DNA from: Mycobacterium dioxanotrophicus
GTDB taxonomy: Bacteria; Actinomycetota; Actinomycetes; Mycobacteriales; Mycobacteriaceae
NCBI RefSeq assembly: GCF_002157835.1
Contig: NZ_CP020809.1
Location: 7,192,001-7,256,000 of the forward strand
Length of the DNA: 64,000 nucleotides
Direction of reading: 5' to 3'
Under the pieces are notes generated by a model that searched no databases, was not told where the DNA came from, and was given only the letters and a program-made list of their open reading frames with translations. Positions 3,720 through 12,918 of this stretch are shown in pieces; the first letter of the stretch is position 1, and each line of letters begins with the position of its first letter. Position numbers and translations under genes: made by a program.

Positions 3720-4340
3720 CTAACCGACGGCCGACTGAGATCCGGTCTCCGACGGTTTGCCTTTCAGGCCGCGCCAGAACAGGTTGATCATCAGCTCGGC
3801 GGACTCGTTGACGTCGGCGTCGCCGGAGCTCACCCGAGTGGCGATGGCCTCACCGGCGCCCACCAGCGCGACGGCCATCATCTCGAAGTCGCTGTCGGGC
3901 TCAGGGTTACGCGTGCCGGTACTGAGCAGCCTGGCCACCAGATCGATGATGCGCTCGCGGCCTTCACGGACCGTGTGAGCAAACGCCTGCGAGCTGGTGG
4001 CCTGCGTGTAGAGCACCATCCACGAAGCCCGGTTGGCGTCGATATAGGTCAGGAACGCCAGTACTGCGTTGCGCAGCAGGTCCTTCGGGCTCTGACTGAA
4101 GTCGATCTGCCCGCGCACCACATCGACGAACCGGGTGAGCTCCCGGTTCAGGCACGCCCCGAACAGCTCTTCCTTGGAGCCGTAGTAGAGATACAGCATC
4201 GGCTTGGAGATCTCGGCCTGCGCTGCGATCGCGTCCATGGACGTCTCGTGATAGCCATTGACCGAGAAGATCTGGACCGCGGCGTCGAGCATCTGCTGTT
4301 CTCGGACGGCACGCGGCAGCCGTTTGGTTCCACCTGCCAT
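3720..4340 (-). CDS. TetR-family transcriptional regulator
   Basis: A 206-residue repressor-type protein. Residues 12-60 form the TetR DNA-binding domain (VREQQMLDAA at the first helix; turn and recognition helix around EISKPMLYLYYGSKEELF). The rest is the all-helical ligand-binding domain. It starts with ATG 4340, 16 bases after the RpiR-type regulator on the same strand. That makes it the third gene of the leftward amidotransferase-RpiR-TetR unit, which faces the ligase/permease operon. It may therefore help control the amine module, but no dyad specific to it was identified. Its ligand is unknown. Confidence 0.85.
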   Translation of the reverse strand: MAGGTKRLPRAVREQQMLDAAVQIFSVNGYHETSMDAIAAQAEISKPMLYLYYGSKEELFGACLNRELTRFVDVVRGQIDFSQSPKDLLRNAVLAFLTYIDANRASWMVLYTQATSSQAFAHTVREGRERIIDLVARLLSTGTRNPEPDSDFEMMAVALVGAGEAIATRVSSGDADVNESAELMINLFWRGLKGKPSETGSQSAVG

Positions 4341-4356
4341 CCGATCAGGGTAACTG

Positions 4357-5250
4357 TCACGGCAGAAGCTCAGCGCGCCGTTGTTCCTCCCACAGCGCCA
4401 TCCTGGTCCGGGCAGGCTCCCCGATCGCGTCCATGACCAACGGGATGAGCAGTTCGGTCAGCAGAAATCCGGCCGCCATGCTCTGGTAGGTGGTGCCCAC
4501 GGTGCTCGAGGCGGCCAGCACGACCTCGGCGTCCGGCGCCACGGGACAGCTCAGATCGTCGGTGATGAGCAGGACGGTCGCGCCGGCGCGGTGCACGCGT
4601 TGGGCCAGCTCGGCGGCGCTGCGCTGGTATCGGTGATAGTCGAAGAGCACCACCACGTCGTGGCGGGACAGTTCGAGCAGCGCACCGAGATCCCCGCCCG
4701 TCGGGTCCCCCAGCACCCGGATACCCGGCCGCAACTGTTCGAGGTGGGCGGCCAGGTGCAGGGCCAGCAGATGTGAGAAGCGGCCGCCGTGCAGATAAAC
4801 GGTTCGTCCGGCGTCGGCGAGCAGCGCGACGGCGGCTTCCAGCGCGGGTTCGGCGAGCAGCGCCAACGTCTGCTCGGCCCGCTCGTTCTGTGCACGCCCC
4901 TGCTGCAGCAGCCGGTCGAGCAGGCTGCCTGCGGCCGGGGCGTCGGGCAGCCGGGTGATCGGGCCGTTCGACCGCGAGGACAGCTCGGCACGCAGCGCGA
5001 CCTGCAGGTCAGCGAACCCGTCGTAGCCGAGGGACTGCGCGAACCGCAACACGGTCGGCGGGCTCACCTCGGCGCGTTCGGCCAACCGGGCCGCGCTGGC
5101 CAACCCGGCGCTCGGATAGTCGCCGAGCAACGCCCGCCCCACTCTTCGTTCAGCCTTGCTGAGCGTGGGCAGCGCCGCGGTGGCCCTGGCCTCCACGGTC
5201 GTCGAGACATTTGCCACCGTCTCCGCAGCGTCCTCTGACACGGTTCTCAA
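4357..5250 (-). CDS. RpiR/MurR-family regulator (HTH plus SIS domain)
   Basis: A 297-residue regulator. Residues about 25-100 form the RpiR-type helix-turn-helix (LSKAERRVGRALLGDY, then SPPTVLRFAQSLGYDGF). Residues about 125-270 form a SIS sugar/phosphate-binding domain (VYLHGGRFSHLLALHLAAHL, DVVVLFDYHRYQ). The best start is TTG 5250, which overlaps the amidotransferase stop by 4 bases; GTG 5241 is an alternative. The overlap indicates translational coupling with the amidotransferase. RpiR proteins usually control transport and catabolism operons and often lie next to them, so the likely target is the divergent ligase/permease promoter, where a perfect inverted repeat sits at 6096-6113. The target is inferred, not shown. 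Confidence 0.87.
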   Translation of the reverse strand: MRTVSEDAAETVANVSTTVEARATAALPTLSKAERRVGRALLGDYPSAGLASAARLAERAEVSPPTVLRFAQSLGYDGFADLQVALRAELSSRSNGPITRLPDAPAAGSLLDRLLQQGRAQNERAEQTLALLAEPALEAAVALLADAGRTVYLHGGRFSHLLALHLAAHLEQLRPGIRVLGDPTGGDLGALLELSRHDVVVLFDYHRYQRSAAELAQRVHRAGATVLLITDDLSCPVAPDAEVVLAASSTVGTTYQSMAAGFLLTELLIPLVMDAIGEPARTRMALWEEQRRAELLP

Positions 5251-6044
5251 TCTGCCATGACGGGCACCGAATTCATCGACAAGTCAGCCATCGAGATTGC
5301 GGTGACACTCTCCGGCGGCAACGGTTGCCAATCCAGGTCGCCGAAGCCGGTCGAACCCACCACCAGGGCGCCGTCGCCGGCCCGGGCCCACCGCAACGCG
5401 AAGTAATCCTCGAGATGCTCGGTCGGCAGGTCGGCCGCAGTGATCTCCTCGATGTCCTCGGCGGGCAGCTGACTGTGGGCGTGCGCGTGTACGGCGATCA
5501 ACTGCCCCTCGCCGAGCACCAGCGCATTGAGACTCGCGCCGGGATACAGCGCACGCAGCTGAGCCACCGCGCGGCGCACCGCCTCGGCCAGGTCCGGTGC
5601 GGTCCGACGGTGTTGGCGGATCACCCCGAAGTACCGCTCGCTGTCCGTGGTGCCGCGCAGCGAGGCGGCGATACCCCGCTCGACGAGCTCGTCGAGCGGG
5701 CCGGTCGGTTTGATGGATCCGTTGTGCGCCATAGCAACTCCGCCGACGACAAACGGGTGGGAGTTCTGCGGTTGCACGGCCAGGCCGTTGGTGGCCCAGC
5801 GCAGATGGACCATGCCGGCCGTCAGACGCTGTTCCTCCACCGCCGCGCTGAAGGCCGGGTCGTCGAGCGCACTGCCCGCCGAGACCTCGACTCGGGGATC
5901 GCCGCCCGGCTCGTCGACGTGGGCGATACCCCAACCATCCCCGTGCACCTTGGTGAGCGCGACGAAGTCCTTCAACACGTGCGCGCCGACCGCGTCGGCG
6001 ACGGAGATCGGTGCAGCCGACACGACTCCGAGCAAGCGACACAT
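5247..6044 (-). CDS. Class II glutamine amidotransferase (Ntn hydrolase, EgtC-like)
   Basis: A 265-residue stand-alone class II amidotransferase. With ATG 6044 the protein begins Met-Cys-Arg-Leu-Leu, so Cys2 becomes the N-terminal nucleophile after Met removal. A longer start at 6053 would bury this Cys, and an AGAGGGG ribosome site precedes 6044. The Ntn-fold signatures MVHLRWATNG, AHNGSI and RGTTDSERYF follow in the usual order. Proteins of this kind hydrolyse gamma-glutamyl bonds (EgtC removes glutamate in ergothioneine synthesis) or pass ammonia to a partner. No ergothioneine genes lie here. Instead it is divergent from a glutamine-synthetase-like ligase, so gamma-glutamyl removal from an intermediate is plausible. 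The specific substrate is inferred. Confidence 0.85.
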   Translation of the reverse strand: MCRLLGVVSAAPISVADAVGAHVLKDFVALTKVHGDGWGIAHVDEPGGDPRVEVSAGSALDDPAFSAAVEEQRLTAGMVHLRWATNGLAVQPQNSHPFVVGGVAMAHNGSIKPTGPLDELVERGIAASLRGTTDSERYFGVIRQHRRTAPDLAEAVRRAVAQLRALYPGASLNALVLGEGQLIAVHAHAHSQLPAEDIEEITAADLPTEHLEDYFALRWARAGDGALVVGSTGFGDLDWQPLPPESVTAISMADLSMNSVPVMAD

Positions 6045-6095
6045 GAGACCCACCCCTCTGAACCCAAAAAATTTTATGAATCGAACCTCTGGCGC

Positions 6096-6113
6096 TCATA
6101 TTAAAGAATATGA
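6096..6113. promoter_or_regulatory. Perfect inverted repeat in divergent amidotransferase/ligase promoter
   Basis: The 118-base gap between the divergent amidotransferase and ligase genes is strikingly AT-rich for this genome. It contains TCATATT, a 4-base spacer, and AATATGA as a perfect 7-bp inverted repeat. It is centred about 58 bases upstream of the ligase start and 60 upstream of the amidotransferase start. It is a good operator candidate for the linked RpiR or TetR regulator. An AGGAGGAGCC ribosome site precedes the ligase ATG at 6163. Confidence 0.55.
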
Positions 6114-6162
6114 AACATTTATGACATAGCGTGCTCGCAGACTTGGGAAGCCAGGAGGAGCC

Positions 6163-7473
6163 ATGACGCCGCAGATCGATGACCTACGCGCTGACGGCGT
6201 CGAGATCGTCGCCGGATCGCTGACCGACCTGGCAGGGGTGACGCGCGCGAAGTACGTGCCGCTGCGGCGTCTCTCCTCTTTCCAGTCCGCGGGTATGGGC
6301 GTCTCACCTTCGTGGAGCGTGTTCTGCGTCGACAGCGGCATCGCCTTCACACCGGACATCGGCGTGGTCGGCGACCTGCGGATCCGGATCGATCCGACCG
6401 AACTGCAGGTGGTGGAAGCCGGCGTGGCCTGGGCGCCCGCGAGCCTGTACGACCAGTACGGGCAACCGGCTCCGTTGTGTACGCGCACGCTGCTGGCCCG
6501 CGCAGAACAGGCGGCAGCCGCACAGGGTTTGACGGCAAAGATCGGCGCCGAGTTGGAGTGCACGATGCTGGCGCCGGACACGCAGCACGCATCCGCCGAG
6601 CCTTGGTCGCCCTACGGCATGCGCACATCCCTGGACCGCTCCGCGTTCCTGGTCGACCTCATGACGAGCGCCGAACGCGCGGGCTTGGTTATCGACCAGC
6701 TCCACACCGAGTACGGCCATGACCAATTCGAAGTGGCGCTGGCGCCGACGACGCCGGTCGCCGCGGCCGACGCCGTCATCCTGGCGCGGATCGTGATCGG
6801 CCGGGCCGCGGCCCGCCACGGTCTCAAGATTTCGTTCTCCCCCGTACCGTTCGCCGGGGAGGCCGGCAACGGCGCACACCTGCACCTGTCGTTCGCCGAC
6901 GACGCCGGTCCCCTGCTGTCCGGTGGCGACGGCCCGCACGGCATGCGGCAGGCGGGGCAATCCGCGATCGCGGGAGTACTCGACACCCTGCCGGATCTCC
7001 TTGGCGTGTATGCGGGTTCGGTGCTGTCGGCTGCACGGCTCAAGCCCGGCAACTGGGCGGGCGCCGCCAAATGCTGGGGCTTGGAGAACCGCGAGGCTGC
7101 GGTCAGGTTCATCGCCGCGACACCGGGAAATCCCCACGGCGCCAATGTCGAACTGAAACTCATCGACCCGAGCGCCAACCCGTATCTCGCGGCGGCAGCT
7201 TTCCTGCGCAGCGCGCTGCGCGGCATCGAGCTCGGCCTGCAGCTGCCTGCCGAGGTCGCCGACGATCCGGCGCAGACGGCCGATCTTCAACCACTGCCGA
7301 CCGATCAGCGCACCGTGCTCAAGACCCTGCAGACCTCCGCAGTCGCCGCCGAGTTGCTGACGCCTGCGGTCATCGAAGGTGTTGCCGCCGTGCGCAATCA
7401 CGAGCTCGTCACCTACGGCGATCGGCCGCCGGCCGAGATCTGCCAGGCACTGCGTTTGGCCTGGAGTTGTTGA
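6163..7473 (+). CDS. Glutamine-synthetase-like gamma-glutamyl ligase
   Basis: A 436-residue member of the glutamine synthetase superfamily, in the size range of gamma-glutamyl amine ligases such as PuuA. The N-terminal part (1-105) is the beta-grasp domain (VEIVAGSLTDLAGVTRAKYV). The catalytic domain carries the acidic metal motif GAELECTM (about residue 127), NGAHLHLSF (about residue 232, HxH region), and the late NREAAVRF and SANPYLAAAAFL motifs. GS-like ligases of this group join glutamate to an amine using ATP. It leads a rightward operon with an APC permease, an aminotransferase, an amidohydrolase and a PLP decarboxylase, which argues for amine catabolism rather than ammonia assimilation. 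ATG 6163 has a strong ribosome site. The amine substrate is unknown. Confidence 0.87.
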   Translation: MTPQIDDLRADGVEIVAGSLTDLAGVTRAKYVPLRRLSSFQSAGMGVSPSWSVFCVDSGIAFTPDIGVVGDLRIRIDPTELQVVEAGVAWAPASLYDQYGQPAPLCTRTLLARAEQAAAAQGLTAKIGAELECTMLAPDTQHASAEPWSPYGMRTSLDRSAFLVDLMTSAERAGLVIDQLHTEYGHDQFEVALAPTTPVAAADAVILARIVIGRAAARHGLKISFSPVPFAGEAGNGAHLHLSFADDAGPLLSGGDGPHGMRQAGQSAIAGVLDTLPDLLGVYAGSVLSAARLKPGNWAGAAKCWGLENREAAVRFIAATPGNPHGANVELKLIDPSANPYLAAAAFLRSALRGIELGLQLPAEVADDPAQTADLQPLPTDQRTVLKTLQTSAVAAELLTPAVIEGVAAVRNHELVTYGDRPPAEICQALRLAWSC

Positions 7474-7522
7474 GCCGATCCGCCGCGCACGCGAGGAGCG
7501 CAAAATCCGAAGGGAGACATCG

Positions 7523-9019
7523 ATGACCACCAGCGCCACCAACGACACCGATCAACTACCGCACCGGCGCCTGCCGTTCTGGGTGGCGCTGGCACTGTCG
7601 GTCGCGACGGTCGGCCCGACCCTGGCCATGTCCGGCAACGGTCAGGGCCTCATCGCCACCGTGGGTAAGGCCATCCCGCTGGTGTTCCTCATCGGCCTGA
7701 TCGGAGTGTCACTGGTCGGCTACAGCTTCGTGCGCCTGACCCGTCACCTCAATCACGCCGGCTCCGCCTACGCACTGGTGGGCGGCACCGTCGGTCCGCG
7801 GGCCGGGTTCTTCTCCGGATTCGCCATGCTCGGCGCCTATGTCGGATTCTCCATCGGCACATTGGCTTTGACGGCGGCCTTCACGAACGCCTTCGTCGCG
7901 CAACTGCAACCGGGCAACGAACACCCGTATCAGCTGCCGTGGATGGCCGTCGTGGTGGTGGGCGCAATCATCTCGTTCGCCCTGGCCGGTCGCGACATCA
8001 GGCTGTTGGCCAAGATTCTGCTCGGCATCGAAGGTGTCGGCATCGTGGCGATGATCGTGCTCGTGATCGCGATATTCGCCCGCGGCGGTGCCTCTTCCAC
8101 CGGGTTCGATGTCAGCGTGTTTTCCTTCTCCGGCGGTGTGTCCGCGTCCGCAGTGCTCAGCGGCGTGGTCGCCGCCTTCCTGTCCTGGGCTGGTTTCGAG
8201 GCCTGCGCCTCGATGGGCGAGGAGACCGACAACCCGGGCCGCAACATTCCGCGGGCGCTGGCCGGCACGCTGATCCTCACCGGTGTGCTGTTCGTGGTGG
8301 TGATGTTCGCTCAGGTCATCGGGTTCGGCACCGACGAGGCCGGACTCGCGGCGTTCCAGAGTTCGGGTAACACGTTGGGCGACTTGGGCAGTCGCTATAT
8401 CGGTCAGTGGTTCTCGCTGATCATCATCTTCACCGCGACCGTCGCCGCGTTCGGGTGCCACATGGCCACCGCCGCGACGTCGGGACGCATGCTCTACGCG
8501 TTCGGTCGAGACGGCTTCGGTCCCAAGGCGCTCGCACACATCCACGAAGCCACCGGGGGTCCGCGCCGGGCCACCTGGCTCGTCGTCGGCCTGGCCCTGG
8601 TGGTGGACCTGATCTGCGGGGCGTCCGGCTGGCCGGTGATGGGCACGGGCAACGCCGCCATCGACACGTATTTCCTGTTCGCCGTGGCCGGTTCGGTGTG
8701 CCTCATGGTGTGCTACCTGCTGGTCGAGGTGGCCGCGGCATGGTTCGTCGGTGCCCCCAAGTTCGTCGCCGTACACGGCGGTCAGGGCAAGGCGCCAGGC
8801 CTGGTACTGCCACTGCTGGGTGCCGTGGTGATCCTGGTGGTGCTGTGGTTCAACGTCAAGGACGCCGAAACCTGGCTGGCCGCACCACTGTTGGGCCTGT
8901 ATTGGTGTGCCGTCGGCCTGGTCATCGCCCTCGCCGCATCGGGTATCGCGAAACGGGTGGGTGAATCGCTGACGCGCGAACTGGATCTCACCCCGCCGGT
9001 ACAGGCGGAGGCCAAGTGA
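7523..9019 (+). CDS. APC-superfamily amino acid/polyamine permease
   Basis: A 498-residue membrane transporter with about 12 predicted helices. The first begins near residue 14 (PFWVALALSVATVGPTLAMS). The glycine-rich stretches and the region ASMGEETDNPGRNIPRALAG, which separates helices mid-protein, are typical of APC permeases. ATG 7523 follows an AGGGAG ribosome site; longer in-frame readings lie inside the ligase gene and are not used. The stop overlaps the next gene by 4 bases (GTGA), so the two are translationally coupled. Its place between the ligase and the aminotransferase suggests import of the amine or amino acid that the operon degrades. Direction of transport and substrate are inferred. 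Confidence 0.88.
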   Translation: MTTSATNDTDQLPHRRLPFWVALALSVATVGPTLAMSGNGQGLIATVGKAIPLVFLIGLIGVSLVGYSFVRLTRHLNHAGSAYALVGGTVGPRAGFFSGFAMLGAYVGFSIGTLALTAAFTNAFVAQLQPGNEHPYQLPWMAVVVVGAIISFALAGRDIRLLAKILLGIEGVGIVAMIVLVIAIFARGGASSTGFDVSVFSFSGGVSASAVLSGVVAAFLSWAGFEACASMGEETDNPGRNIPRALAGTLILTGVLFVVVMFAQVIGFGTDEAGLAAFQSSGNTLGDLGSRYIGQWFSLIIIFTATVAAFGCHMATAATSGRMLYAFGRDGFGPKALAHIHEATGGPRRATWLVVGLALVVDLICGASGWPVMGTGNAAIDTYFLFAVAGSVCLMVCYLLVEVAAAWFVGAPKFVAVHGGQGKAPGLVLPLLGAVVILVVLWFNVKDAETWLAAPLLGLYWCAVGLVIALAASGIAKRVGESLTRELDLTPPVQAEAK

Positions 9020-10311
9020 GCACGCTCTACGAACGCGACGAAGCGGTCATCGCCGGCATCGAGAAGCTGAGGTTCTTCCCGCTGGAGGTGGTCTCCGGTC
9101 ACGGCTGCACCCTCGTGGCCCCCGATGGCCGTGAGCTACTGGACCTTTCGGCGACCTGGACCGCCAGCGGTCTGGGACACGGGCATCCGGCGATCGCCGA
9201 CGCGGTCAGCCGGGCCGTGCGGACCGCTCCCGGGTCCGGTGGGCTTTCCGCCGTGCATCCCGACTCGGTGGGACTGGCCGAGGACCTGCTCGAGTTGGTT
9301 CCCGGCAGCGGTGAGCGGCGGGTCTATCTGGGGCATGCCGGTTCGGACGCCAACGACGTCGCGCTGCGCGCGTGCCGCCACGCCACCGGGCGGCACACCG
9401 TGATCGCGTTCGAGCACAGTTACCACGGCGGCGTCGGAGTCGCCATGGGCGTGTCCGGCGTACACGTCGACGCCGGTGCCGCGCCGGACCCCGACGTCGT
9501 GTTCCTGCCGTACCCCAACCCTTTCCGGCCCACCTCCGCCGGCATCGACGCCGACGTCGCCGCCTGCCTCGCCAGCGCCGAGCAGCATCTGGCCGGCGGC
9601 TCCATCGCGTGCCTGATCGTCGAGCCCATCCTGTCCGACGGCGGCCTCGTGGTTCCACCGGACGGCTTTCTGGCCCGGCTGCACGAGGCGTGCCGCCGCC
9701 ACGGCGTGCCCATGATCTGCGACGAGGTCAAGATGGGCCTGGGCAGGCCGGGCACATTGCACGCATTCGAACACGACGGCGTGGTGCCCGACATCGTGAC
9801 CTTCGGCAAGGTGCTCGGCGGCGGCCTGCCGCTGTCCGCTGCCGTGGGCCCTGCGGAACTGCTCGACAATCCGCCGGCCGCGGCGCTGCTCACGACTGCA
9901 GGCAATCCGGTGTGCACCGCCGCGGGCCGTGCTGTACTGGCCACCATCGTGGGCGAGCAGCTACCCGAACGCGCAGCGAAAGTCGGTGCGGTACTGCAGG
10001 AAGCGTTGCAGGCGCTGGAATCGGATGCCATCGGCGAGGTGCGTGGGCGCGGGCTCGCCATCGGTGTGGAGCTGGTCGATCCGGCCACCGGGGACCGTGA
10101 CCCGCGACTCGCCGCGCAGGTGGTGTACCGCGCATGGGAACTGGGCGCGGTGGTGTACTACGTCGGCGGCAACGTCCTGGAGATCACCCCGCCACTGGTC
10201 CTCAGCGAGGCCGAAGCGGCCCGCGGCGCCGAGATCATCGGGACGGCGATCGCCGACGCGGCCGCAGGGAAGGTCGACGCACAGGAGGTGGCGCGCTATG
10301 CCGGATGGTGA
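9016..10311 (+). CDS. Class III aminotransferase (PLP-dependent)
   Basis: A 431-residue class III aminotransferase. Family marks are GLGHGHPAIADAV near residue 52, the PLP phosphate-binding GHAGSDANDVALR (about 106), the Asp-Glu pair in CDEVKMGLGRPGT (about 240), and the Schiff-base Lys in VTFGKVLGGGLPLSA (about 264). GTG 9016 overlaps the permease stop by 4 bases. Members of this class move an omega-amino group from compounds such as 4-aminobutyrate, diamines or amino-acid derivatives to a 2-oxo acid. In this operon it may act on an amine or its gamma-glutamyl derivative. The substrate cannot be read from sequence. The next gene starts 14 bases before this one ends. Confidence 0.88.
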   Translation: MSTLYERDEAVIAGIEKLRFFPLEVVSGHGCTLVAPDGRELLDLSATWTASGLGHGHPAIADAVSRAVRTAPGSGGLSAVHPDSVGLAEDLLELVPGSGERRVYLGHAGSDANDVALRACRHATGRHTVIAFEHSYHGGVGVAMGVSGVHVDAGAAPDPDVVFLPYPNPFRPTSAGIDADVAACLASAEQHLAGGSIACLIVEPILSDGGLVVPPDGFLARLHEACRRHGVPMICDEVKMGLGRPGTLHAFEHDGVVPDIVTFGKVLGGGLPLSAAVGPAELLDNPPAAALLTTAGNPVCTAAGRAVLATIVGEQLPERAAKVGAVLQEALQALESDAIGEVRGRGLAIGVELVDPATGDRDPRLAAQVVYRAWELGAVVYYVGGNVLEITPPLVLSEAEAARGAEIIGTAIADAAAGKVDAQEVARYAGW

Positions 10312-11470
10312 ACTGGCGGACGTGTTCGACGGGGTCCAGGCCGAAGTACCCGACGCGCTCGCCGAACACCTGCGCACGGTCCGGTTGATCGACCACCATG
10401 TGCACGGCAGCTTCAACAAGCCCGTCGACCGGGCCGGTTTCGAGGCGTCGATCAATGAGGGATCCACCGATCCCGTACCGGATTTCATGACGCAGTTCGA
10501 TTCGCCGCTGGGCCTGTCCATCCGCCGTTGGTGCGCGCCGGTGCTCGGACTGCAGGCCCACGCGGATGCGGACGAATACTGGAAGCGGCGCAGCGAATTC
10601 ACGCCCGACGAGCTGGCCGCGCTGATGTTGCCGCTCGCGGGCATCGAACGCTGGATCGTCGACACCGGTTTCAAAGGTGACCTCATCGCGACGCCCGAAC
10701 GGCTCACCGAACTCAGTGGCAGCCCGTCGTCGTCGATCCTGCGGCTGGAGCGTCTCGCCGAGGATCTCCTCGAATCCGGCATCGCCGCGCAGGAGTTTCC
10801 CGACGCGTTCCGGGCCGCACTGCAGGCCGCCGCAGATTCACCAGATACCGTCGGCACCAAAACGATTGCGGCCTACCGCACCGGATTCGACATCGACTGG
10901 TCGCGGCCCGACGACGCTCTGGTGATCGAGCATGCGCGGGCGCTGGCCGCCCGGCCGTCGCAACGCGTGGACAGCCCGGTGCTGATCGCGTTCGGCGTGC
11001 ACGAGGCCGCCGCGCACGGGTTGCCGATCCAGGTGCACGTCGGCTTCGGCGACCGGGATCTCGATCTGCACCGCACCGATCCCATGTTGCTGCTACCGCT
11101 GCTGCGATCGATGACACCGGTTCCGGTGCTGCTGCTGCATTGCTATCCGTTTCACCGGCAGTCCGGTTATCTGGCGCAAGCCTTCGACCACGTGAATTTC
11201 GATGTGGGCCTTGGCATCAACTATCTGGGCGTGCGATCGACCGGTCTGGTCGCCGAGGCCATGGAGACCGCCCCGTTCGCCAAGCAACTGTTCTCCTCGG
11301 ACGCGTTCGGCCCGCCCGAACTGCATCTGCTGGGCTCGGTGCTGTGGCGTCGCGCCATGGGACTGGTTCTCGGCCGATGGATTCGGTCGGGCGACTGCGC
11401 CGAGGCCGATGCGATCAGGATCGTCGACATGATCGGGGTGCACAACGCCACCCGGGTGTACTCGCTGTGA
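10298..11470 (+). CDS. Amidohydrolase family 2 protein (FluG N-domain-like)
   Basis: A 390-residue TIM-barrel amidohydrolase. The metal motif Asp-His-His-Val-His is at about residues 31-35 (RLIDHHVHGSF). A His lies in LPIQVHVGFGDRDLDL (about 248), and another in VLLLHCYPFHRQSGYLA (about 280). The expected late acidic residue falls in LFSSDAFGPPELH (about 330). ATG 10298 is preceded by AGGAGG and overlaps the aminotransferase by 14 bases. Fungal FluG and plant NodGS fuse such a domain to a glutamine-synthetase-like domain; here both halves exist as separate genes of one operon. This suggests a linked ligation/hydrolysis chemistry. The reaction itself is not known. Confidence 0.82.
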   Translation: MPDGELADVFDGVQAEVPDALAEHLRTVRLIDHHVHGSFNKPVDRAGFEASINEGSTDPVPDFMTQFDSPLGLSIRRWCAPVLGLQAHADADEYWKRRSEFTPDELAALMLPLAGIERWIVDTGFKGDLIATPERLTELSGSPSSSILRLERLAEDLLESGIAAQEFPDAFRAALQAAADSPDTVGTKTIAAYRTGFDIDWSRPDDALVIEHARALAARPSQRVDSPVLIAFGVHEAAAHGLPIQVHVGFGDRDLDLHRTDPMLLLPLLRSMTPVPVLLLHCYPFHRQSGYLAQAFDHVNFDVGLGINYLGVRSTGLVAEAMETAPFAKQLFSSDAFGPPELHLLGSVLWRRAMGLVLGRWIRSGDCAEADAIRIVDMIGVHNATRVYSL

Positions 11471-12918
11471 ATCACGCCGCGGCGCCGTTGTTCGAGGCAA
11501 TCCGAGAATTCGTCGAGCGGGAGCAGGCACCGCTGTACAGCCCGGGCCACAAGGGTGGGCGCACGCTCGACCCGTGGTTCCGGGAAAACATTGCCGCCCT
11601 TGACCTCAACAACCTGCCCGACACCGACACGCTGCACTGCCCGGAGGGACCGATCCTGCAGGCCGAGCAACTGGTCGCCGACGCGTGGCGTGTCGGGCAG
11701 AGTTTCATCCTGGTTCAGGGCTCGACGAGCGGCAACATCGCGGTGGCGTTGTCGGCGCTGCGTCCCGGTGAGCCGGTTCTGGTGCAGCGCAACGCCCACA
11801 AGTCCGTGCTGGCCGGCCTGGTCCAGGTCGGCGCGCTGCCGGTGTGGCTCGAGCCGCGGTGGGACACGCAGTTCGGCATCGCCCACGGCCTGGACGCCGA
11901 CGTGGTCGAACGCGCCCTCGCCGCGAGCGGGGCGTCGGCGCTGTGGATGTTGCACCCCACCTACTACGGAACCACGGCCGACATCAGCGCGCTGTCAGAG
12001 TTGTGCCGGCGCTTCGACGCTCGACTCCTGGTCGACGGCGCGCACTCGCCGCATTTCGCGTTCCATCCCGAATTGCCGGTGCCCGCTGAGAAATCCGGTG
12101 CGGCGGCCACGGTGCAGTCGGTGCACAAGGTGCTCTCGGGCCTCAGCCAAGCTGCGGTACTGCACATCGATCCGCATGCGATAGATCCGGCGACGGTGCG
12201 CCGGGCACTGCAGCTGATCCAGACCACCAGCCCGCATTTCGCCATCATGGCGTCGATCGATCTGGCCCGCCGGCAGATGATGATCGACGGTCGAGATCTG
12301 TTGGGCCGCGCACTGGAGCGGGCCCGCCACGCGGCCACACGACTGGCCGCGACACCGGGCCTGCGCGTGCTGCGCCCCGAGGACGCGTCCGGCGCGGGCA
12401 CCGGCTTTCATCAGCTCGACGAGACCAAATTGCTCATCGGCACAACCGGACTGGCCGCCGACGCACACGACATCGTCGCGCGACTCAACCGCGTGCACGG
12501 GGTGCAGCCGGAACTGAGCGGCCCCGGCCACGTCCTGTGTATCTCGACCATCGGCAATACCGATACCGACATGGATCGGCTGGTCGCGGGGTTCACCGAG
12601 GTTGCCGGCTGGGCCGGACGTGCCGACACCTTCGGCGGCGGTGACACATTGACCACCGATCTGCTGGCGCTGCGAGGACCCACGGTGCTGACCCCGCGCG
12701 AGGCGTTCTTCGCGCAAACCGACACGGTGGCGCTCACCGATGCGACCGGACTGGTTGCGGCGGAGGCGATCACGCCCTACCCACCGGGCATACCCCTGGT
12801 GATGCCAGGCGAACGGCTCACCGGCGAGGTCATCGACCTGCTGCGCGCGCTACGCGACGCAGGGAACCCGATCAGCGCATCCGATCCGAAACTCGGCGCT
12901 GTCAAGGTGGTTCGGTGA
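11467..12918 (+). CDS. Orn/Lys/Arg decarboxylase-family PLP enzyme
   Basis: A 483-residue fold-type I PLP enzyme of the ornithine/lysine/arginine decarboxylase family (short form, without the wing domain of the large inducible enzymes). It opens with YSPGHKGG (about residue 24), then has FILVQGSTSGNIA (about 80) and LVDGAHSPHF, where Asp and His hold the cofactor. The Schiff-base Lys lies in QSVHKVLSGLSQ (about 221). GTG 11467 overlaps the amidohydrolase stop by 4 bases (GTGA), so the operon is tightly coupled. The product would be a diamine or agmatine-like amine feeding the same operon, or the enzyme may have another PLP chemistry, since family members vary. It ends 3 bases before the convergent lpqI gene. 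Confidence 0.85.
   Translation: MNHAAAPLFEAIREFVEREQAPLYSPGHKGGRTLDPWFRENIAALDLNNLPDTDTLHCPEGPILQAEQLVADAWRVGQSFILVQGSTSGNIAVALSALRPGEPVLVQRNAHKSVLAGLVQVGALPVWLEPRWDTQFGIAHGLDADVVERALAASGASALWMLHPTYYGTTADISALSELCRRFDARLLVDGAHSPHFAFHPELPVPAEKSGAAATVQSVHKVLSGLSQAAVLHIDPHAIDPATVRRALQLIQTTSPHFAIMASIDLARRQMMIDGRDLLGRALERARHAATRLAATPGLRVLRPEDASGAGTGFHQLDETKLLIGTTGLAADAHDIVARLNRVHGVQPELSGPGHVLCISTIGNTDTDMDRLVAGFTEVAGWAGRADTFGGGDTLTTDLLALRGPTVLTPREAFFAQTDTVALTDATGLVAAEAITPYPPGIPLVMPGERLTGEVIDLLRALRDAGNPISASDPKLGAVKVVR

What the first reader, a model, noticed from the sequence alone, without database searches (positions are those of the whole stretch)
3720..12918. Rewired gamma-glutamylation module for an amine or amino acid
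Seen: divergent operons with a class II (Cys2) amidotransferase, RpiR and TetR regulators on one side, and a GS-like ligase, APC permease, class III aminotransferase, amidohydrolase and Orn/Lys/Arg decarboxylase on the other, with overlapping start/stop codons. Known: the Puu pathway uses a GS-like ligase, an importer, an oxidase, an aldehyde dehydrogenase, a class I hydrolase (PuuD) and an aminotransferase. Here the oxidase, aldehyde dehydrogenase and PuuD are missing; an Ntn amidotransferase and a FluG-like amidohydrolase appear instead. Inference: a distinct route that caps an amine with glutamate, transaminates it, and removes the cap.
Basis: partly seen in the sequence, partly recalled or inferred. 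Interest (0 to 1): 0.75.

Follow-up and report, generated by a model that had tools for sequence, protein, structure and literature searches.

The report
Racemase-bearing gamma-glutamylation operon in mycobacteria
A conserved bacterial operon seems to cap a small nitrogen compound with glutamate, flip its handedness, cut an amide bond and remove the cap again; it would give a home to an industrially used racemase and to a ligase-hydrolase pair whose real job is unknown.

Summary
The genes are there and form a real unit. The GS-like gene (at least 67% identity) occurs in 12 of 60 Mycobacterium genomes, and the class II amidotransferase in the same 12; the PLP gene is in 11 of these, the decarboxylase in 8, none of the three in the other 48 at the thresholds used. 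TetR is a neighbour, not a part. The ligase lacks both ammonia-handling acids (Ser48, Trp298). The 'aminotransferase' groups with solved alpha-amino-caprolactam and amino acid amide racemases (about 50% identity to the closest) and has Glu where its paralogues carry a basic residue or His, so the transamination step is unlikely. A Shinella protein close to the solved racemase lies in the same kind of operon. Klebsiella plasmids and another actinobacterial family carry the core with other amidases or another decarboxylase. The FluG-like amidohydrolase is in 48 of 49 genomes with a GlnA3-type ligase and 0 of 11 without.

Best reading: a redox-free route for an alpha-amino amide or lactam: racemise, cap, hydrolyse, uncap, often decarboxylate. 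Substrate and step order are inferred. New variant of a known kind.

The parts
4357..5250 (-). MurR/RpiR-family regulator (HTH_6 + SIS), probable regulator of the module
   Evidence: Pfam; next to the amidotransferase in 14 of 14 related clusters; RpiR also listed in 6 of 8 racemase loci viewed on proteobacterial plasmids
5247..6044 (-). stand-alone class II (Ntn, Cys2) amidotransferase, EgtC/GlmS-glutaminase type; proposed gamma-glutamyl cap remover
   Evidence: Pfam GATase_4; EgtC model 48.6 bits, cut-off 218.65; Cys2, Arg82, Asn108-Gly109, Asp134 (numbered from the Met-Cys start) kept in the window protein and 18 of 18 aligned relatives; only the class II domain is matched in 268 residues
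6072..6082 (.). conserved promoter block 1 (TTTTATGAATC)
   Evidence: 9-11 of 11 bases in 14 of 14 cluster relatives, always starting 29 bp before block 2
6101..6128 (.). conserved promoter block 2 (TTAAAGAATATGAAACATTTATGACATA), candidate operator/promoter
   Evidence: 21-28 of 28 bases in 14 of 14 cluster relatives; best match 14-16 in 20 shuffles; 14 at the two cluster-less loci; 17 in M. pinniadriaticum; 15 in G111
6163..7473 (+). GS-fold gamma-glutamyl ligase of the GlnA3 clade, ammonia site lost (Ser48, Trp298)
   Evidence: residue roles from PMC6478659
7523..9019 (+). APC-family amino acid/amine permease
   Evidence: Pfam PF13520; in 14 of 14 related clusters
9016..10311 (+). PLP fold-type I racemase of the alpha-amino-epsilon-caprolactam / amino acid amide racemase clade
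   Evidence: seven best PDB hits E 1e-118 to 1e-121, next best 7e-71; 50% to 5m49; Trp48, Tyr136, Asp208, Lys265; Glu389 where 11 paralogues have Arg, Lys or His
10298..11470 (+). binuclear-type amidohydrolase of the FluG N-terminal / 2QPX family
   Evidence: His34, His36, Lys188, Tyr193, His247, His281, Asp335 kept in 28 of 28 aligned
11467..12918 (+). short Orn/Lys/Arg-type PLP decarboxylase (match to the long enzymes begins after their N-terminal domain); optional tail of the operon
   Evidence: SVHK motif at 218-221; in 8 of 12 cluster genomes
3720..4340 (-). TetR regulator: neighbour, not counted as part of the module
   Evidence: not found near 8 of 14 related clusters and present at the two loci where the rest of the cluster is absent

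Best explanation
This is an RpiR-controlled gamma-glutamylation operon for a compound whose alpha-carbon can be racemised, most likely an alpha-amino amide or alpha-amino lactam of a (di)amino acid. Proposed course: the APC permease takes the compound up; the racemase interconverts its D and L forms; the ligase joins the gamma-carboxyl of glutamate to its amine; the FluG-type amidohydrolase cuts the amide or lactam bond of the capped compound; the EgtC-like amidotransferase removes the glutamate; and, where present, the decarboxylase turns the freed (di)amino acid into an amine. Shown by comparison: the gene unit, the lost ammonia site, membership of the racemase clade, the near-obligate pairing of ligase and amidohydrolase in Mycobacterium, the intact gamma-glutamyl site of the amidotransferase. 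Inferred: substrate, step order, direction (breakdown rather than synthesis), control by RpiR.
For: Unit: GS and amidotransferase in the same 12 of 60 genomes, racemase in 11, decarboxylase in 8, none in the other 48 at the thresholds used; same order in 14 related loci. Racemase clade. A Shinella protein that scores 813 bits against the solved alpha-amino-epsilon-caprolactam racemase 2zuk/3dxw is encoded right after an N-formylglutamate amidohydrolase in an RpiR-amidase-GS operon. Such racemases act on alpha-amino lactams, amino acid amides and homocysteine thiolactone (PMC11391342, which used 3DXW, and PMC7431475, passages). Decarboxylase: an Orn/Lys/Arg type here, one nearest to diaminobutyrate decarboxylase in the same slot in G111. 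Ligase-amidohydrolase coupling: 48 of 49 versus 0 of 11 genomes; amidohydrolase alone at the locus in G002 and G028. Cap removal: class II amidotransferase, N-formylglutamate amidohydrolase or M20 peptidase appear by turns; an N-formylglutamate-amidohydrolase-family protein is the proposed gamma-glutamylglycine hydrolase of the GlnA4 ethanolamine route (PMC9397018, passages).
Against: No substrate has been measured. The window racemase is about 50% identical to its closest solved relative, and two residues are missing before NVLE compared with the solved ones. The nearest tested ligase kin, GlnA3 of M. tuberculosis, glutamylates spermine (PMC11841054, passages), which favours a polyamine. Capping an amine only to cut a neighbouring amide is an unproven reason for the cap. 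In both Klebsiella loci a short-chain dehydrogenase gene lies beyond the racemase on the other strand, so a redox step cannot be excluded there. M. pinniadriaticum keeps only ligase and amidotransferase. Mycobacterial counts share ancestry and were not corrected for it.
Confidence: 0.45

Rival explanations
1. Polyamine route of the Puu/GlnA3 kind: the decarboxylase makes or the permease imports a di- or polyamine, the ligase caps it, the class III enzyme transaminates the far amine, and the hydrolases remove the cap.
For: Ligase is sister to mycobacterial GlnA3 (98/97); GlnA3 of M. tuberculosis glutamylates spermine; an amidohydrolase, SCO6961, is listed with the ligase SCO6962 of S. coelicolor (PMC9397018 table); Orn/Lys/Arg decarboxylase present.
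Against: The PLP enzyme groups with racemases and has Glu where 11 class III paralogues of the same genome have Arg (5), Lys (4) or His (2); no aldehyde dehydrogenase or oxidase was identified in the window cluster or listed beside the racemase in the plasmid loci viewed, apart from dehydrogenase genes on the other strand in Klebsiella; the decarboxylase is optional.
Confidence: 0.22
2. D-amino acid route: the PLP enzyme racemises free amino acids such as D-lysine or D-ornithine, the decarboxylase makes the diamine, and ligase plus hydrolases serve it or neighbouring compounds.
For: Free amino acid racemases exist in the wider fold family (isoleucine 2-epimerase, broad-specificity racemases); the decarboxylase family acts on diamino acids.
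Against: Free amino acid racemases score far lower (about 240 bits against about 400 for lactam/amide racemases); clusters without a decarboxylase keep the racemase (G009 and G033; no decarboxylase listed in the loci).
Confidence: 0.18
3. Biosynthesis: the operon makes a gamma-glutamylated signal or metabolite, as proposed for fungal FluG, and the hydrolases trim it.
For: FluG joins the same ligase and amidohydrolase families and acts in development by an unidentified gamma-glutamylated intermediate (PMC6478659, abstract and sections).
Against: An importer-type transporter (APC or branched-chain-type ABC) goes with the racemase in 8 of 8 plasmid loci viewed and an APC permease in 14 of 14 mycobacterial clusters, which fits uptake and breakdown better.
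Confidence: 0.1

Closest known systems
FluG-type pair (fungal FluG; mycobacterial GlnA3 with its neighbouring amidohydrolase)
   Same: Same ligase clade as GlnA3 and same amidohydrolase family, found together; same loss of ammonia residues as FluG (Ser, Trp)
   Different: Here the pair lies in an operon with racemase, permease, RpiR, proposed cap remover and decarboxylase
alpha-amino-epsilon-caprolactam racemase, with L-lysine-lactamase in a lysine process (PMC7431475 passage)
   Same: PLP enzyme about 50% identical to the closest solved relative, with the SDGG motif and Glu in place of the basic residue of transaminases; followed by an amide-bond hydrolase and a Lys/Orn-type decarboxylase
   Different: The native operons found here also hold a gamma-glutamyl ligase; no paper in the held library names both 'caprolactam racemase' and 'glutamine synthetase'
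Ethanolamine gamma-glutamylation (GlnA4) of Streptomyces
   Same: Ligase cap, then removal from a gamma-glutamyl amino acid; its proposed hydrolase is of the N-formylglutamate amidohydrolase family (PMC9397018 passages), as in the Klebsiella and rhizobial relatives
   Different: Uses two dehydrogenases between cap and uncap; none is in the window cluster
Puu putrescine pathway
   Same: GS-fold ligase and permease; glutamate cap
   Different: PuuB oxidase, PuuC dehydrogenase and class I PuuD not in the window cluster; racemase-type PLP enzyme; class II amidotransferase
EgtC (ergothioneine synthesis)
   Same: Stand-alone class II fold, Cys2 and gamma-glutamyl site kept
   Different: Scores 48.6 bits against a cut-off of 218.65; no other ergothioneine gene among the cluster's matches

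Membership tests
alpha-amino-epsilon-caprolactam / amino acid amide racemase | closest to solved lactam/amide racemases rather than to transaminases | tested here: met
   seven best PDB hits E 1e-118 to 1e-121: three titled as racemases (6gio, 2zuk, 3dxw), four titled only 'Aminotransferase class-III' (5m46, 5m49, 5m4b, 5m4d; recalled as a caprolactam racemase); GABA transaminases 2e-62 or weaker
alpha-amino-epsilon-caprolactam / amino acid amide racemase | Trp49, Tyr137, Asp210, Lys267 (numbering and roles recalled) kept | tested here: met
   Trp48, Tyr136, Asp208, Lys265 of the window, shared with 5m49; the amide racemase 6gio itself lacks the Trp
alpha-amino-epsilon-caprolactam / amino acid amide racemase | racemises alpha-amino lactams or amides | not testable with these tools
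   needs the purified enzyme
class III aminotransferase (transaminating) | basic residue that binds the alpha-carboxylate of the keto acid (R398 in GABA transaminase, recalled) | tested here: not met
   Glu389; 11 class III paralogues of the same genome have Arg (5), Lys (4) or His (2) there (6 further matches were not fetched)
true type I glutamine synthetase | Asp and Glu that handle ammonia (D53, E304 in PDB 4LNN) | tested here: not met
   Ser48 and Trp298; never Asp at the first and always Trp at the second site in 25 ligases aligned
FluG-type ligase and amidohydrolase pair | amidohydrolase metal ligands and carbamylated Lys of 2QPX | tested here: met
   all seven residues kept in 28 of 28
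FluG-type ligase and amidohydrolase pair | the two proteins go together | tested here: met
   48 of 49 Mycobacterium genomes with an intact ligase, 0 of 11 without
Puu pathway | PuuB oxidase, PuuC aldehyde dehydrogenase, PuuD class I hydrolase | tested here: not met
   none among the genes of the window cluster; the rest of the genome was not searched for them
EgtC | curated NCBIfam cut-off | tested here: not met
   48.6 of 218.65 bits
EgtC | gamma-glutamyl amide hydrolase activity | not testable with these tools
   site residues kept, activity unmeasured
Orn/Lys/Arg decarboxylase | PF01276 major and PF03711 C-terminal domains, PLP lysine | tested here: met
   203.5 and 47.7 bits, SVHK motif

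The most novel reading that the evidence does not exclude
The operon is the natural home of lactam/amide racemases: a route that harvests racemic alpha-amino lactams or amides of diamino acids (lysine or ornithine lactam type; the N-hydroxylated lysine lactam of mycobactin-type siderophores, recalled, and the aminocaprolactam of capuramycin antibiotics, a search listing plus recall, are natural sources). GlnA3 with its amidohydrolase in M. tuberculosis and FluG in fungi are stripped descendants that still act on compounds of that kind, not chiefly on polyamines.
Probability: 0.15. Interest if true: 0.85.

Novelty: new variant of a known kind. Interest (0 to 1): 0.64.

Why it matters
Lactam/amide racemases are used in biocatalysis; no paper in the held library names one together with glutamine synthetase, and I recall no assigned physiological role. 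FluG and GlnA3 each have a known ligase fold but no settled pathway (PMC6478659 abstract; PMC11841054 title and passages). One conserved operon now ties the three together and gives a small, testable list of substrates. In 60 Mycobacterium genomes every genome but one with an intact GlnA3-type ligase also holds the amidohydrolase, beside it, in this operon, or alone at this locus, which says the two act on one pathway.

Tried and rejected
TetR as a part: rejected. Ordinary glutamine synthetase: rejected. Ectoine- or hydantoin-type breakdown was considered because M20, M24 and isochorismatase-type genes occur near some relatives; no gene of those pathways was among the ones identified, but I did not search for them by family. 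N-acyl-homoserine-lactone breakdown was considered because the racemase accepts homocysteine thiolactone; nothing seen supports or excludes it. The scan of named genomes gave only 5 loci, all Mycobacterium or Mycolicibacterium. Plasmid searches with the amidohydrolase found 2 records and with the amidotransferase none; the one amidohydrolase record viewed had no annotation. Two weaker racemase relatives (G497, G620) show no other cluster gene nearby by tblastn. The class- and phylum-wide racemase searches scored only the best 7 and 4 candidates per genome, so 2 of 246 and 3 of 396, own genome included, are lower bounds. No fold was predicted, since sequence already placed every enzyme.
Full report
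WHAT IS THERE. The window comes from an 8.08 Mb genome of a genus whose named relatives at this locus are Mycobacterium and Mycolicibacterium; the closest found is M. aquaticum (ligase 99%; the tool leaves out the window's own and very near records). The amidotransferase should start at base 6044 (Met-Cys), three codons inside the longest frame; 17 of 18 aligned relatives read Met-Cys and one Val-Cys there.

IS IT A UNIT? In 60 Mycobacterium genomes, the window's own included, the ligase at 67% identity or more occurs in 12; the amidotransferase (E up to 1e-30) in the same 12; the PLP enzyme (E up to 1e-75) in 11 of them (missing in G018); the decarboxylase (E up to 1e-75) in 8 of them (missing in G009, G018, G033, G041). 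None of the three occurs in the other 48 at those thresholds. These genes are linked, so the co-occurrence is one observation of a unit more than independent events. In 14 related loci other than the window the order RpiR, amidotransferase, divergent GS, APC, PLP enzyme is the same; the amidohydrolase follows in 12 (two contigs end before it) and the decarboxylase in 10 (absent in L036 and L039, unseen in the two that end). In G055 the PLP gene and in G009 the amidohydrolase match in two frames, so those copies may be broken or misread. M. pinniadriaticum (L034; G018 is the same contig by length) has only ligase and amidotransferase.

A CONTROL REGION. Between the divergent operons two blocks are conserved in all 14 relatives (21-28 of 28 bases for the larger; best matches in 20 shuffles 14-16) and always start 29 bases apart. 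The larger block is at chance level in G002 and G028, which lack the cluster, and in G111; it scores 17 in M. pinniadriaticum. It is a good candidate for promoter and operator, but RpiR binding is inferred.

THE LIGASE. It belongs to the GlnA3 clade: sister to mycobacterial GlnA3 with 98/97 support, with the ligases of G111 and of a Klebsiella plasmid just outside (midpoint root). No curated family passes its cut-off (best gamma-glutamylputrescine synthetase, 180.7 of 650 bits). The two acids that handle ammonia in true glutamine synthetase (D53 and E304 of 4LNN; PMC6478659 section 18) are Ser48 and Trp298; in 25 ligases aligned the first is never Asp and the second is always Trp. The metal- and glutamate-binding motifs are kept in the window protein.

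THE PLP ENZYME. Its seven best hits among solved structures lie at 1e-118 to 1e-121: 6gio is titled amino acid amide racemase, 2zuk and 3dxw alpha-amino-epsilon-caprolactam racemase, the other four only 'Aminotransferase class-III' (recalled as the Rhizobium freirei caprolactam racemase). Free amino acid racemases follow at 7e-71 and GABA transaminases at 2e-62. The window shares 50% with 5m49 and the Trp, Tyr, Asp (SDGG) and Lys of its active site (roles recalled). It also shares the stretch TTAGNPV with the amide racemase 6gio, where 5m49 reads TLHGNPV. It has Glu389 where 11 class III paralogues of the same genome have Arg (5), Lys (4) or His (2) (the role of that residue is recalled). Racemases of this clade act on alpha-amino lactams, amino acid amides and homocysteine thiolactone (PMC11391342, abstract and passages; PMC7431475, passages).

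WHERE ELSE. The plasmid collection holds 85 records with a relative of this enzyme at E up to 1e-60, 45 of them Klebsiella. I viewed eight loci that encode one: two Klebsiella (62% to the window) and six alphaproteobacterial (47-51%; identities). All eight list a GS-family gene and an isochorismatase-type cysteine hydrolase nearby, seven an N-formylglutamate amidohydrolase (not the second Klebsiella), six an RpiR regulator; the transporter is an APC permease in the two Klebsiella and a branched-chain-type ABC system in the others. The gene tables are incomplete. In both Klebsiella loci a short-chain dehydrogenase lies beyond the racemase on the other strand. The Shinella zoogloeoides protein is 85% identical to 5m49 and scores 813 bits against 2zuk, so a close relative of the solved caprolactam racemase sits in such an operon. 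In the actinobacterium G111, of another family, the cluster recurs split by a contig end (RpiR 35%, amidotransferase 40%, ligase 46%, APC 50%, PLP enzyme 65-66%, amidohydrolase 44%), and the last gene is a group II PLP decarboxylase nearest to diaminobutyrate decarboxylase (215.7 bits, cut-off 900). So the decarboxylase slot has been filled by two families, both tied to diamino acids by their best matches. Ligase clusters without the racemase carry an M20 peptidase (L052, L053; L110 has M20 and N-formylglutamate amidohydrolase) or N-formylglutamate amidohydrolase with a FluG-type amidohydrolase (L114), and no class II amidotransferase was found or listed there.

LIGASE AND AMIDOHYDROLASE ARE PARTNERS. 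Over the same 60 genomes an amidohydrolase of this family (E up to 1e-20) is present in 48 of 49 with an intact GlnA3-type ligase (GlnA3 or the cluster's) and in 0 of 11 without (Fisher 4e-11). The exception is G040. G031, whose GlnA3 matches in two pieces with a stop, was counted as without. Five of the 48 are not clean: G043, G044 and G045 show a stop, G009 two frames, G003 a contig end. GlnA3 has the amidohydrolase next to it in 35 of 48 genomes, but in 0 of 10 that carry the fuller cluster and GlnA3 (Fisher 4e-8, no correction for ancestry). In G002 and G028 the locus reads TetR, amidohydrolase, NagZ in the order and orientation of the window's ends, and no other cluster gene was found within the 19 kb taken; the tree puts both inside the cluster-type amidohydrolases (100/99), their relation to each other unresolved, and their GlnA3 has no amidohydrolase beside it. 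The simplest reading is that the operon was lost while the one part GlnA3 still needed was kept. FluG of fungi fuses the same two families (PMC6478659, abstract, section 18 and part 1 of section 23). All metal ligands and the carbamylated Lys of the two-metal type are kept in 28 of 28 sequences, which points to hydrolysis.

HOW IT MOST LIKELY WORKS. No redox enzyme is in the window cluster. What remains is uptake, racemisation, capping, two amide-bond hydrolyses and an optional decarboxylation. The proposed cap remover is by turns a class II amidotransferase, an N-formylglutamate amidohydrolase or an M20 peptidase; the amidotransferase keeps the residues that hold a gamma-glutamyl group (roles recalled from GlmS), and in the GlnA4 ethanolamine route an N-formylglutamate-amidohydrolase-family protein is the proposed gamma-glutamylglycine hydrolase (PMC9397018, passages). 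That leaves the amidohydrolase (or isochorismatase-type enzyme) to cut a second amide, which fits a racemase whose tested substrates are amides and lactams, and a decarboxylase for the diamino acid that a lactam would yield. The order is inference; I put the substrate class at about 40% and the racemase label at about 80%.

KNOWN OR NEW. Every enzyme family is known; the set is not one I know, and no paper in the held library names both caprolactam racemase and glutamine synthetase; searches for the proteobacterial gene set listed one paper each, neither on the subject by title. That is a limited library. I call it a new variant of the gamma-glutamylation kind. The work on GlnA3 of M. tuberculosis that I saw in title and passages (PMC11841054) treats it as a spermine ligase not essential for spermine detoxification; its place inside a clade of ligases of which several travel with racemases suggests that other substrates deserve a test.

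Noticed in passing
L093 9085-10254 (G002) and L094 9224-10441 (G028): Cluster-type amidohydrolase alone between TetR and NagZ, apparently kept after loss of the rest of the operon.
   Followed up: yes
L080 2590-9293 and L087 2589-9293: Klebsiella plasmids carry the ligase-permease-racemase core with a cysteine hydrolase and (L080) RpiR and N-formylglutamate amidohydrolase; 45 of 85 plasmid records with the racemase are Klebsiella.
   Followed up: partly
L052 8360-14724 and L053 5849-9494: Second kind of mycobacterial ligase cluster with an M20 peptidase between ligase and amidohydrolase.
   Followed up: partly
L069 7233-14757: Actinobacterial cluster of ligase, amidohydrolase and class II amidotransferase with methylaspartate ammonia-lyase, two short-chain dehydrogenases and an isochorismatase-type hydrolase; a possible different substrate.
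   Followed up: no
L114 5154-8471: Allomeiothermus plasmid with N-formylglutamate amidohydrolase, ligase and FluG-type amidohydrolase in a row.
   Followed up: no
G031:C1:680930-682250: GlnA3 matches in two pieces with one stop, in a genome without the amidohydrolase: both partners apparently lost.
   Followed up: no
L095 (G040): The only intact GlnA3 genome of 60 without any amidohydrolase of this family.
   Followed up: no
L034 7234-13083: M. pinniadriaticum keeps only ligase and amidotransferase, beside a metallo-beta-lactamase-fold gene and an M24 (creatinase/prolidase-like) gene.
   Followed up: no
G102, G119, G133, G158, G169, G190, G218, G227 and others of family f26: Small-genome actinobacteria carry class II amidotransferase relatives at 29-37% identity; surroundings looked at for G270 and G169 only, no ligase cluster beyond a 27% GS match near the latter.
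   Followed up: partly
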